This document shows, piece after piece, positions 10,894 through 32,584 of a stretch of DNA of 32,584 nucleotides. Numbering within the stretch: position 1 is the stretch's first letter; the number at the start of each line of letters is the position of its first letter. The DNA comes from an uncultured Fibrobacter sp. GTDB taxonomy: Bacteria; Fibrobacterota; Fibrobacteria; Fibrobacterales; Fibrobacteraceae. Location of the stretch: NCBI RefSeq assembly GCF_947305105.1, contig NZ_CAMZCS010000033.1, positions 1 through 32,584 of the forward strand, given 5' to 3'. The notes below the pieces were generated by a model. That model made no database searches, was not told the origin of the DNA, and saw only the letters and a program-made list of their open reading frames with translations. Made by a program: the position numbers and the translations under genes.

Positions 10894-10949
10894 ACGAGTT
10901 TCCCCCTCTTTCTCTAACCACCAGCCTCTTACCATCAATCACTATTTTC

Positions 10950-10983: not shown

Positions 10984-11244
10984 ATGACGTTTGAAGAAAT
11001 GTACGCCCTGGCTTGCCAGCGCAAGAAAGAAATGCCCGAAGGCAAGGGAACCACAGAACTGTTCAAGAAAGGCCCGCACGCCATTGGCAAGAAGCTTGTA
11101 GAAGAAGCCGCCGAAAGCTGGCAGGCTGCACGCTTCGAAAGCCGCGATGCCCAGTGCCTCGAACTTTCGCAGGTGCTCTACTATGTGGCCGTGATGATGG
11201 CCGAAAAAGGTCTCACTCTCGAAGAGGTGTACGCAAAACTATGA
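10984..11244 (+). CDS. hisE: Phosphoribosyl-ATP pyrophosphatase
   Basis: HisE hydrolyses phosphoribosyl-ATP to phosphoribosyl-AMP, the second step of histidine synthesis. The 86-residue protein is a complete stand-alone MazG-like helical domain. It shows GKGTTELFKKGPHAIGKKLVEEAAE, where the Glu pair coordinates magnesium, and LSQVLYYVAVMMAEKGL. In many bacteria it is fused to HisI; here it is separate. GAGG lies 6 bases before the ATG. Its stop overlaps the hisG start by ATGA, so steps 1 and 2 of the pathway are coupled. No other his genes are in the window. Confidence 0.93.
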   Translation: MTFEEMYALACQRKKEMPEGKGTTELFKKGPHAIGKKLVEEAAESWQAARFESRDAQCLELSQVLYYVAVMMAEKGLTLEEVYAKL

Positions 11245-12080
11245 TCAAGGTAGCTCTCCCGAACAAGGGCATGCTTTTCGAGCCCACGCAGGAACTCCTG
11301 AAGGCCTGCGGTTACAAGGCTTCCAAGCCTTACAAGACTTTGACCCAGCTCGACACGAAGAACGGAATCGAATTCTTCTTCTTGCGCCCGAGCGATATCC
11401 CCATGTACGTGGGCCGCGGCATCATTGACGCAGGCATTACCGGCATTGACTTCAACGCCGAGGCGAAGAGCCCCGCGGTGAAGGTGCTGGACCTCCCCTT
11501 TGGCGCTTCCAAGATGTGCGCCGCCGTCCCGAACGACAGCCCGGTGCAGTCGCTCGACGAGCTCAAGGACAAGACGATTGCCACGAGCTTCCCGCATATC
11601 GTGGAAGGTTTCTACAAGAAGTCGATGGACTTCGTTGTGCTCGAAGGCGCCGTCGAAATCTCGGTGAGCCTCGGCGTGGCCGACGCCATCGTTGACGTGG
11701 TGGAAACCGGCACGACGCTCAAGCAGGCCGGGCTCCGCATTGTGGGCGACCCGCTGTTCAGGAGCAACGCCGCGCTGTTCTGCAACCCGCAGAAGACCGA
11801 ACTCGAAGAAGTCAATACGCTCATCCGCCGCATCCAGGGCAAGCTGGTCGCGCAGTCCTACATGATGATCGAGTACGACTGCCCCGCCGAACTGTTGCAG
11901 AAGGCATGCGAAATGACTCCGGGCCTCGACGCCCCGACGGTCACCAAGCTGCACGGCCGCGAATGGTACTCCGTGAAGGCCATGGTCCCGCAAGAAGAAG
12001 CGAACGCCATCATGGACCGCCTTTGGGACGTAGGAGCAAGGAGCATCCTGCTGTTCGGAATCAAGAGCGCCCGTATTTAG
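11241..12080 (+). CDS. hisG: ATP phosphoribosyltransferase, long form
   Basis: HisG condenses ATP with PRPP, the committed step of histidine synthesis. The 279-residue product is the long form, which carries its own C-terminal regulatory ACT-like domain (about 205-279, ending ARSILLFGIKSARI) and needs no HisZ. Visible motifs include LPNKGMLFEP at the start, FFFLRPSDIPMYVGRGIIDAGITG, and the PRPP-binding stretch ADAIVDVVETGTTLKQAGL. The start at 11241 overlaps the hisE stop; GAGGTG lies upstream inside hisE. Feedback inhibition by histidine is expected for this form. A cluster of hairpins begins right after the stop codon. Confidence 0.95.
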   Translation: MIKVALPNKGMLFEPTQELLKACGYKASKPYKTLTQLDTKNGIEFFFLRPSDIPMYVGRGIIDAGITGIDFNAEAKSPAVKVLDLPFGASKMCAAVPNDSPVQSLDELKDKTIATSFPHIVEGFYKKSMDFVVLEGAVEISVSLGVADAIVDVVETGTTLKQAGLRIVGDPLFRSNAALFCNPQKTELEEVNTLIRRIQGKLVAQSYMMIEYDCPAELLQKACEMTPGLDAPTVTKLHGREWYSVKAMVPQEEANAIMDRLWDVGARSILLFGIKSARI

Positions 12081-12250
12081 CAATGAGGTCGCGCAAAGCG
12101 CTTTGAGCAATGGGGTCGGCACTACGTGCCTTTGAGCTAAAGTCAGGTGCCTTCGGCACAGTTATAATAGCTCATGCCCCATACGTCAAAGAAAGCTTGC
12201 GAACGGCCTCAGATCTCACACCTCAAAGGACCGAAGGTCCGACCTCATAC
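12081..12250. repeat. Cluster of small hairpins with conserved flanks and differing stems
   Basis: At least three units share a pattern. Unit 1 (12081-12108): CAATGAGGTC, stem GCGC-AAA-GCGC, TTTGAGC. Unit 2 (12108-12137): CAATGGGGTC, stem GGCAC-TAC-GTGCC, TTTGAGC. A later unit in the opposite orientation (12221-12250): CCTCAAA, stem GGACC-GAA-GGTCC, GACCTCATAC. A fourth stem GTGCC-TTC-GGCAC (12147-12159) and a blurred unit around 12184-12210 lie between them. Stem sequences differ but each remains fully paired, while flanks are kept. This looks like a REP-type dispersed repeat cluster; it may also end or stabilise the hisEG transcript. Confidence 0.75.
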
Positions 12251-12261
12251 CTCGAGCCTAA

Positions 12262-13497
12262 ATGCATTCTCTCGCTTATTTAGCACGCCAGCCTATCCTT
12301 GACCGCGAAGGCAAGATTTACGCCTACGAACTTTTATTCCGCGATTCGCCCGAAAGCGACATTGCCGTGATTTCAAGCGATGTTCAGGCGACGGCCCAAG
12401 TGCTGGAAAATGTCCTCAACAACATCGGGTTCCAGCGCCTCATCGGTGACCACAAGGCGTTCATCAACTGCAGCCGCCAGATGCTGCTCGACAATATTTT
12501 CGGATTATTGAACCCTGCGAACTTTGTGCTGGAAATCCTGGAAGACGTGGAAGTGGACAGCACGCTCATCCGCGCCGTAGAACGCTACAAGGCCCGTGGT
12601 TTCGAAATCGCGTTGGACGACTTCATCTACAACGACGATTACATCCGCCGGTTCGAGCCGCTGTTCAAGTACGTATCTTACGTGAAAATGGACATCGCGG
12701 ACAACGACAAGGAATCGTTGGAAAAGGCTGTCCAGTTTTTCAGCCCCATGCACATCAAGATTCTCGCCGAAAAGGTCGAAGACGAATCGACATTCAAGAA
12801 GTGCCTCGACGACGGCTACGACTACTTCCAGGGATTCTTCTTTGCCAAGCCCGAACTGGTGACCGGCCAGAAGATTGACGCGACCTCTGTCGCCATCCTG
12901 CGCATTTTGCTGTTGCTCCAGTCGCGCCCGAGCTTGGAAGAACTTTGCGAAAAACTCGACGAGACACCGGACATCGCAGCGAACCTGCTCAAGTTCGTGA
13001 ACTCGGGCAACAACGGCGATGGCAACGGAATCAAGACCGTGAAAGATGCCATCGTGTGGGTCGGCATGAGCCACATCCACAAATGGCTGATGCTCATGCT
13101 TTATGCGCGCCCGGAACTCGGCATCTCGCCACAGAGCTCGCCGCTATTCCAGAGTGCGGCTCACCGTGCCAAGTTCCTCGAAATCGTCGCGAAGGCTATC
13201 GAACCGACAAACCCGCTGTTCGCTGCAAAGGCATTCATGGTTGGGCTCATCAGCCGTATGGACGCACTGGTGCGCGCACCCCTCGAGACTATCCTCCCCG
13301 AATCCCCCGCCGACGACGAAATGAGCGAATCCCTGCTCAACAGAAAGGGGAAACTCGGCACACTACTCCGGCTTGCGGATGCCGTCGAACTCGACGACCG
13401 CAAAGCCATTCTCATGACAATCGAAGAATTAAAGATTTCCACCAAGCAGCTAAACCGCTGCATCAACGAGGCATACAGTTGGGCTAATGAATGTTGA
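12262..13497 (+). CDS. EAL-HDOD signalling protein (YuxH/CdgJ type)
   Basis: The 411-residue cytoplasmic protein joins an EAL-type cyclic-di-GMP phosphodiesterase domain (about 1-205) to an HDOD domain (about 205-400). The EAL signature reads ELL (Glu23). Other metal or catalytic positions appear kept: Asn69, Glu91, Asp119-Asp120, Lys142, Glu170, Gln190. The loop-6 motif DDFG is DDFI, however, so activity is uncertain. In better-known relatives such as CdgJ this architecture influences motility. There is no Shine-Dalgarno before the ATG, and the hairpin cluster ends 11 bases upstream. The last 11 bases overlap recR, which starts the tight gene run to pyrC. Confidence 0.88.
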   Translation: MHSLAYLARQPILDREGKIYAYELLFRDSPESDIAVISSDVQATAQVLENVLNNIGFQRLIGDHKAFINCSRQMLLDNIFGLLNPANFVLEILEDVEVDSTLIRAVERYKARGFEIALDDFIYNDDYIRRFEPLFKYVSYVKMDIADNDKESLEKAVQFFSPMHIKILAEKVEDESTFKKCLDDGYDYFQGFFFAKPELVTGQKIDATSVAILRILLLLQSRPSLEELCEKLDETPDIAANLLKFVNSGNNGDGNGIKTVKDAIVWVGMSHIHKWLMLMLYARPELGISPQSSPLFQSAAHRAKFLEIVAKAIEPTNPLFAAKAFMVGLISRMDALVRAPLETILPESPADDEMSESLLNRKGKLGTLLRLADAVELDDRKAILMTIEELKISTKQLNRCINEAYSWANEC

Positions 13498-32326: not shown

Positions 32327-32365
32327 CCTGAGATCCTTCGACTTCGCCTTACGGCTTCGCTCAGG
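32327..32365. repeat. Imperfect inverted repeat, REP-like
   Basis: CCTGAG (32327-32332) pairs with CTCAGG (32360-32365), enclosing repeated CTTCG motifs and a short GCC-TTAC-GGC-like core. It lies in the untranslated tail of tsf. The layout resembles short dispersed intergenic repeats rather than a terminator, since no T-run follows. Confidence 0.5.
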
Positions 32366-32396
32366 ATGACACACAGTTTTTTCAGCAGCGGCATCA

Positions 32397-32424
32397 CTGT
32401 CTACTGCCTACTTCCTACTGTCTA
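32397..32424. repeat. Four tandem 7-bp repeats CT(G/T)(T/C)CTA
   Basis: CTGTCTA, CTGCCTA, CTTCCTA and CTGTCTA follow each other without gaps, ending 4 bases before the tsf stop codon. The unit varies only at its third and fourth positions. Such heptamer runs could change in number by slippage. Confidence 0.65.
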
Positions 32425-32428
32425 CTAA

Positions 32429-32584
32429 TTAGTTTCCGCGTTCGAAGCGGATGAAGTTCACGACCTTCAAGCTAGAAAGACCGAGCTGCTTGGCAACGAC
32501 TTCCTGGAGGTAGTCCTTGACAGAGAGCTTCTTCGGGTTCTTTTCAGACATGAAGAATTCCTGGTCTTCGAGAACGATTTCCTT
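32429..32584 (-). CDS. tsf: Elongation factor Ts, C-terminal part (cut by window edge)
   Basis: Only the last 51 codons are present; the gene continues past the right edge. The sequence KEIVLEDQEFFMSEKNPKKL, then SVKDYLQEVV and VVNFIRFERGN, matches the C-terminus of EF-Ts (the LEQPFVKD and FVRFEVGEG region), the nucleotide exchange factor of EF-Tu. It ends soon after FIRFERGN, earlier than in E. coli. In most bacteria rpsB lies upstream of tsf, which would be outside the window. Confidence 0.85.
   Translation of the reverse strand, partial: KEIVLEDQEFFMSEKNPKKLSVKDYLQEVVAKQLGLSSLKVVNFIRFERGN

What the first reader, a model, noticed from the sequence alone, without database searches (positions are those of the whole stretch)
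12081..12250. Hairpin cluster with conserved flanks and compensating stem changes
Seen: units share flanks (CAATGRGGTC left, TTTGAGC right) but have different, fully paired stems: GCGC/GCGC, GGCAC/GTGCC, GTGCC/GGCAC, GGACC/GGTCC, with 3-base loops. One unit is in the opposite orientation. Keeping pairing while sequence changes points to selection for a structure, or to a family of mobile short repeats with hypervariable cores. It sits between hisG and an EAL-HDOD gene, where it could separate or stabilise transcripts.
Basis: seen in the sequence. Interest (0 to 1): 0.6.

Follow-up and report, generated by a model that had tools for sequence, protein, structure and literature searches.

The report
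Hypervariable mini-hairpins in Fibrobacter heptamer repeats
The hairpin cluster between hisG and its neighbour is one copy of a large, fast-changing family of short DNA repeats in rumen Fibrobacter, whose tiny hairpins keep their shape while their sequence changes, and which also sit inside protein genes; how they spread is unknown.

Summary
TGAGGTC-[hairpin]-TTTGAG occurs 76 times in this Fibrobacter genome (control 2) and in most other Fibrobacter, but not outside the genus. Stems differ between copies yet stay paired: 97% of cells paired against 67% after shuffling, with three pairs showing changes on both sides.

New here: (1) The hairpins sit inside 7-bp-periodic arrays, G-rich at the left end of an insert and C-rich at the right. 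(2) A second family in another heptamer dialect, ACGARAGAAC-[hairpin]-TACAGACGA, has the same architecture. (3) On the C-rich strand, 3-nt loops are mostly GNA, and stems broken by a tandem G.A mismatch always show GA/GA (36 of 36 distinct cores), the sheared-pair arrangement. (4) hisG and the EAL-HDOD gene lie 3-5 nt apart in five relatives; the window has a 181-bp insert there, and other relatives have inserts of different heptamers. (5) Copies lie in-frame inside rsmB and a translational GTPase gene, at sites that hold different inserts in other species.

No RAYT, reverse transcriptase or Ku was found in this genome. Closest known: heptamer repeats of Nostoc and Xanthomonas. Verdict: a new variant of dispersed inverted heptamer repeats. 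The spreading mechanism is inferred, not shown.

The parts
12081..12261 (.). whole insert between the hisG stop codon and the EAL-HDOD start codon; relatives L038, L039, L041, L048, L053 have 3-5 nt here
12084..12107 (+). unit 1: TGAGGTC-GCGC-AAA-GCGC-TTTGAG
12111..12136 (+). unit 2: TGGGGTC-GGCAC-TAC-GTGCC-TTTGAG (TNC loop, i.e. GNA on the other strand)
12147..12159 (.). central hairpin GTGCC-TTC-GGCAC without the conserved flanks
   Evidence: comparison by eye with the common unit
12222..12247 (-). reverse unit: TGAGGTC-GGACC-TTC-GGTCC-TTTGAG on the minus strand
12213..12258 (-). C-rich heptamer array that carries the reverse unit (CTCACAC CTCAAAG ... CCTCATA CCTCGAG)
11235..12080 (+). hisG (HisG and HisG_C domains), left neighbour; approximate start, taken inside the longer mechanical ORF
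12262..13497 (+). EAL-HDOD gene, right neighbour

Best explanation
The 181-bp segment is one copy of a dispersed, fast-replaced insertion element of Fibrobacter. The element is built from short 7-bp-periodic arrays in inverted orientation (G-rich strand at the left end, C-rich strand at the right), with mini-hairpin units embedded in the arrays. Shown: dispersal through the genome, structural covariation between copies, the preference for GNA loops and tandem GA mismatches on the C-rich strand, different content or absence at the same junction in relatives, and in-frame copies inside genes. Inferred: the structure that matters forms on the C-rich strand as single-stranded nucleic acid (probably DNA, extruded or exposed during replication). 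The ~26-bp hairpin unit itself spreads from array to array by a hairpin-dependent copying or conversion step, which filters for cores that fold. The insert at hisG is therefore most likely tolerated rather than a conserved regulator of these genes. No enzyme has been identified.
For: Dispersal: 76 exact units against 2 in the control, none above control outside the genus. Covariation: 66 distinct 13-nt cores, 97% of cells paired against 66.8% shuffled, pairs 4-12 and 5-11 show GC, CG, AU and UA. Second family with other flanks and the same architecture: control 0, Fibrobacter only. C-strand signature: 36 of 36 distinct cores with one tandem G.A mismatch are 5'-GA/GA-5', 35 at pairs 3-4; 33 of 54 perfect 5-bp cores have TNC (= GNA) loops. 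Unit-level spread: GGCAC-TTC-GTGCC 9 times and GGCGC-GTT-GCGCC 6 times among 22 such cores in this genome, where independence gives a maximum of 5 in 5000 trials, while outer flanks of same-core copies are no more alike than those of different-core copies. Period 7: 46 runs of four or more KAG against 0 at periods 4-6, 8-11 and 13. Polarity: G-then-C 9, C-then-G 1. Turnover: empty junctions and different inserts at hisG; 1-nt gap in G008 against ~159 nt in the window genome at C1:201836; hairpin GGCGC-AAC-GCGCC replaced by GCGCC-TAT-GGCGC with flanks kept; different in-frame inserts in rsmB and the GTPase gene.
Against: No target-site duplication was recognised, no polymorphism within one species was seen, and no mobilising gene was found. 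Exact-core overlap between the two families (6) is what independent draws give (4.7), so exchange of cores between families is not shown. The GA class could partly reflect a few successful lineages. Arrays shared with near relative G031 are conserved, so turnover is not fast at every locus. Folding programs do not show the tandem-GA hairpins as unusually stable, though DNA-specific GNA bonuses may not be modelled. The comparison genomes are mostly metagenome-assembled.
Confidence: 0.5

Rival explanations
1. Mutational product without a mobile element: 7-bp arrays grow by replication slippage, and perfect mini-palindromes are made and corrected in place by strand switching (quasipalindrome repair) during replication.
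For: Degenerate 7-bp arrays; core overlap between families is at chance level, as expected if cores arise independently; no RAYT, RT or Ku in the genome.
Against: Strand switching gives perfect Watson-Crick stems, not a preferred tandem GA/GA at pairs 3-4 with covarying pairs on both sides; particular cores are multiplied within the genome; the same flanks recur at dozens of loci.
Confidence: 0.25
2. RNA element under selection at each site: the hairpins act in transcripts (3'-end protection, attenuation or insulation between hisG and the EAL-HDOD gene).
For: Pairing is conserved across copies; most inspected copies lie between genes, often next to stop codons.
Against: Both orientations in similar number (34 and 42); copies inside genes; content swapped or absent at the same junction; no terminator-like tail; on the G-rich strand the mismatches would be UC/UC, which are not stabilising.
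Confidence: 0.15
3. REP element mobilised by a RAYT (REP-associated tyrosine transposase).
For: Short palindromes, intergenic, inverted pairs.
Against: No Y1_Tnp match in the window genome, nor in G008, G013, G016 and G022; no GTAG tag next to the hairpins; REPs share a consensus stem, these do not.
Confidence: 0.04
4. Ends of broken chromosomes are extended by template-directed heptamer addition and rejoined, which would give the G-left, C-right polarity.
For: Polarity 9 to 1 and telomere-like dialects such as GGGGTTA.
Against: No reverse transcriptase in the window genome or copy-rich G013, G016, G022 and G031; no Ku in any of 37 Fibrobacter; an ordinary inverted repeat gives the same polarity.
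Confidence: 0.04

Closest known systems
Heptamer repeats of Xanthomonas (GGGANTN)n and Nostoc GGGGA(T/C)T (PMC4692102)
   Same: Degenerate 7-bp tandem units, dispersed, mostly intergenic, close to the 3' end of the upstream gene; about 70 pairs per Xanthomonas genome in convergent orientation; a minority inside genes; long arrays not at the same genes in two related species.
   Different: No embedded variable mini-hairpin units described in the passages read; one main heptamer per genome, whereas Fibrobacter shows several dialects in one array.
Heptamer stems in the P6b loop of the Nostoc trnL group I intron (PMC4476775)
   Same: Heptamer motifs (TDNGATT or NNTGAGT) build a stem; one class repeatedly replaces the other; side stem-loops tend to be inserted at the same position in both classes.
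   Different: One RNA locus there; here many loci and protein genes. The side hairpins are not described as having a tandem GA plus GNA signature in the passages read.
GTAG/CGTC-tagged REP elements (PMC3733652) and REPINs (PMC3116915)
   Same: Short dispersed palindromes, intergenic, inverted pairs, some inside genes; CGTC families lack a known transposase.
   Different: REPs have a family consensus and a GTAG or CGTC tag; here the flanks are conserved and the stem is not, and no RAYT is present.
Rickettsia palindromic elements (from own knowledge, Ogata and colleagues)
   Same: Palindromic repeats found between genes and in-frame inside protein genes.
   Different: No sequence relation tested; RPEs have family consensus sequences of about 100-150 bp.
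Extra-stable DNA mini-hairpins d(GCGAAGC) / C-GNA-G (Hirao 1994, Yoshizawa 1997, titles seen in the reference list of PMC11101458)
   Same: 3-nt GNA loop closed by C-G, as in most cores here on the C-rich strand.
   Different: A structural motif, not a repeat family.

Membership tests
Dispersed inverted heptamer repeats (Xanthomonas/Nostoc type) | 7-bp tandem period with degenerate units | tested here: met
   46 runs against 0 at periods 4-6, 8-11 and 13; autocorrelation peaks at 7, 14, 21, 28
Dispersed inverted heptamer repeats (Xanthomonas/Nostoc type) | convergent pairs of arrays | tested here: met
   G-then-C 9, C-then-G 1
Dispersed inverted heptamer repeats (Xanthomonas/Nostoc type) | mostly intergenic | tested here: met
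   of about 17 distinct own-genome loci inspected, 3 lie inside genes
Dispersed inverted heptamer repeats (Xanthomonas/Nostoc type) | sequence of the heptamer (GGGAATC / GGGGATT) | tested here: not met
   dialects here are TGAGGTA, AGACGAR, GTAGGAA, TTAGTGG, CTAGGGG and others; similarity of kind, not of sequence
REP / RAYT system | RAYT (Y1_Tnp) gene in the genome | tested here: not met
   none in G000 or in copy-rich G008, G013, G016, G022
REP / RAYT system | shared consensus palindrome with GTAG or CGTC tag | tested here: not met
   85 and 97 distinct cores in the two families; flanks TGAGGTC/TTTGAG and ACGARAGAAC/TACAGACGA
Rfam RNA families | match above gathering score in the window | tested here: not met
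   0 matches
Intrinsic terminator | GC-rich stem followed by a T run | tested here: not met
   0 found at 11900-12500
Rickettsia palindromic element-like in-frame insertion | in-frame repeat inside protein genes, absent or different in relatives | tested here: met
   rsmB and translational GTPase sites
Rickettsia palindromic element-like in-frame insertion | homology to RPE families | not tested
   no RPE sequences compared

The most novel reading that the evidence does not exclude
A mobile single-stranded-DNA hairpin element of a new kind: a ~26-bp unit recognised by fold alone (GNA triloop, sheared GA pairs, conserved short flanks), so that its stem is free to change, spreading through inverted heptamer arrays into gene gaps and protein loops by an unidentified enzyme.
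Probability: 0.2. Interest if true: 0.85.

Novelty: new variant of a known kind. Interest (0 to 1): 0.62.

Why it matters
Heptamer repeats have been noted in Nostoc and Xanthomonas without a mechanism; one paper states that no detailed literature on heptameric repeats was available (PMC4692102). Fibrobacter offers many copies, several dialects, many sequenced relatives and clear empty sites, so origin and spread become directly testable. The tandem-GA plus GNA signature points to one strand and to a fold as the recognised feature. The in-frame inserts in RsmB and a translational GTPase show that the process also alters conserved housekeeping proteins.

Tried and rejected
RAYT/IS200 link: PF01797 absent in the window genome and in most copy-rich genomes (present in G031). 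Reverse transcriptase: absent in the window genome. Ku end joining: absent in all 37. Rfam: no match. Terminator or promoter: none. Shared core cassettes between the two families: 6 exact perfect 13-nt cores shared, 4.7 expected (2-8), so rejected as evidence of exchange. Copying of large segments: outer flanks of same-core units are no more alike than others. Compensatory point changes at orthologous loci: arrays are either conserved (G031) or replaced wholesale (G008), with one whole-core swap, so the covariation is between paralogous copies. Literature: no paper in the held library describes these Fibrobacter repeats under the terms tried; this is absence from that library only. Core lists were copied from the partial hit lists and are not a complete census.

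Full report
WHAT IS THERE. The window belongs to a rumen Fibrobacter genome (G000, 3.57 Mb in 72 contigs). Three of the four have the conserved flanks. The hairpin at 12147-12159 does not. A decayed fifth unit in reverse orientation lies at 12185-12211.

NOT CHANCE. The pattern TGAGGT N{5,35} TTTGAG has 100 matches in the genome and 12 when read backwards; TGAGGTC N{5,24} TTTGAG has 76 and 2. Across 60 genomes the units are found in most Fibrobacter, from 0 to 105 copies, and reach only about control level outside the genus. Rfam has no match in the window.

STRUCTURE IS KEPT WHILE SEQUENCE CHANGES. Cores were collected by their flanks only, not by their fold, from the listed hits; these lists are partial and cover a subset of genomes. 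Of 85 distinct cores in family 1, 43 are perfect stems and 23 more are perfect except for one tandem G.A mismatch. In family 2 the numbers are 97, 62 and 13. For the 66 distinct 13-nt cores, 97.0% of cells pair against 66.8% after shuffling, and the covariation score is 0.662 against 0.130 (0 of 500 shuffles reach it); the two inner variable pairs show all four Watson-Crick types, while the outermost pair is almost always G-C and the loop-closing pair C-G. The 29 distinct 15-nt cores, which include the mismatch type, also covary.

A STRAND SIGNATURE. Read on the C-rich strand (CTCAAAG-core-GACCTCA), 33 of 54 distinct perfect 5-bp cores have a GNA loop (TNC on the other strand) closed by C-G. 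All 36 distinct cores with a single tandem G.A mismatch have 5'-GA opposite 5'-GA, 35 of them at pairs 3 and 4, with different pairs outside and inside. From established knowledge, C-GNA-G loops are exceptionally stable in DNA (Hirao 1994 and Yoshizawa 1997, titles seen) and tandem 5'-GA/GA-5' forms sheared pairs. On the opposite strand the same positions would be TC/TC, which has no such property. This is the main reason to think that a fold on the C-rich strand is what matters. The folding programs did not make the tandem-GA examples look specially stable, so the stability itself remains to be measured.

A SECOND FAMILY AND A 7-BP FRAME. The relatives L033, L035, L036, L037 and L056 carry a different insert at the hisG junction, made of AGACGAR heptamers with a hairpin in the same kind of position. 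The pattern from these, ACGARAGAAC N{8,26} TACAGACGA, finds a large second family in Fibrobacter (0 in the control, none outside the genus), again with variable stems, mostly 4-6 bp, and mostly 3-nt loops. In a 398-kb sample of the window genome, intergenic DNA shows autocorrelation peaks at 7, 14, 21 and 28, and runs of four or more [TG]AG at period 7 occur 46 times against 0 at periods 4-6, 8-11 and 13. Neighbouring arrays within 300 bp are G-rich then C-rich 9 times and the reverse once. The window insert has the same polarity.

TURNOVER AND IN-FRAME COPIES. At the hisG junction, L038, L039, L041, L048 and L053 have only 3-5 nt; L034 has the window's insert; L033, whose EAL-HDOD protein is 99% identical, has another insert; L050 and L045 have still other heptamers. 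At C1:201836 the relative G008 has a 1-nt gap between two genes where the window genome has about 159 nt. At one orthologous locus the hairpin GGCGC-AAC-GCGCC is replaced by GCGCC-TAT-GGCGC between matching flanks. Near relative G031 shares several arrays almost unchanged. Units lie in-frame inside rsmB and inside a translational GTPase gene (named here from its N-terminal domain; RF3/EF-G-like), with the C-rich, stop-free strand as sense strand; the same protein positions hold different heptamer or palindrome inserts in other species. A third copy lies inside a lipoprotein-like gene.

HOW IT MAY SPREAD. Within the window genome two cores make up 9 and 6 of 22 perfect 5-bp cores, more than independent draws allow (largest multiplicity 5 in 5000 trials), yet the outer flanks of same-core units are no more alike than those of other units. 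This points to the short unit itself as what is copied or converted. Exact cores shared between the two families are at chance level (6 against 4.7 expected), so exchange between families is not shown. No RAYT, RT or Ku gene was found in the window genome. The spreading step is therefore inferred, and slippage with strand switching remains a serious rival, although it does not by itself explain the preferred GA/GA mismatches.

FUNCTION AT THIS LOCUS. No terminator-like or promoter-like site was found. Copies are in both orientations, and the junction is empty or filled differently in relatives. A conserved role in separating hisG from the EAL-HDOD gene is not supported, though an effect on expression in this strain is not excluded.

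COMPARED WITH WHAT IS KNOWN. The closest kind is the dispersed, convergent heptamer repeats of Xanthomonas and Nostoc (PMC4692102) and the heptamer stems with side hairpins and class replacement in the Nostoc trnL intron (PMC4476775). The Fibrobacter elements share period, polarity, position and replacement, but not heptamer sequence, and add embedded variable mini-hairpins with a one-strand structural signature and several dialects per array. They do not meet the tests for REP/RAYT membership.

Noticed in passing
window 32328-32371: Copy of the CATCCTGAGCGAAGC...GAAGGATC type repeat (read as CHPERS in some proteins; widespread in bacteria from own knowledge) with an enlarged core; its short form also reads as a stem with GA/GA and a GAA loop. 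A relative of it sits in-frame in the translational GTPase gene of L127 and L129.
   Followed up: partly
window 32397-32432, 10911-10949 and 1-24: Further 7-bp-periodic C-rich arrays in the window (CTGTCTACTGCCTACTTCC, TCTCTAACCACCAGCCTCTTACC, CACCAACCACTAACCACTT).
   Followed up: partly
own genome, e.g. G000 C1:51830-52110 and C2:20248-20419 (L134, L147): Another dispersed element with two hairpins, GTGAAAAGAATCACGCACTTCGTGCGTTAATATAAGACGGCGAAGCCGTGATATTTCTCCCTAG, at the centre of inverted heptamer arrays whose dialects are layered in a recurring order.
   Followed up: partly
L102-L131 and L072-L101: The loop between ELGQ and SIRDKYQPLL in a translational GTPase, and the loop before FDRILLDVPC in RsmB, hold different repeat-derived peptides in many Fibrobacter species: permissive hot spots.
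   Followed up: partly
G038 and G039 (same order and class): Period-7 KAG arrays above control also in two genomes outside the genus (TTAGTGG-like heptamers in G038), although the hairpin units are absent there.
   Followed up: no
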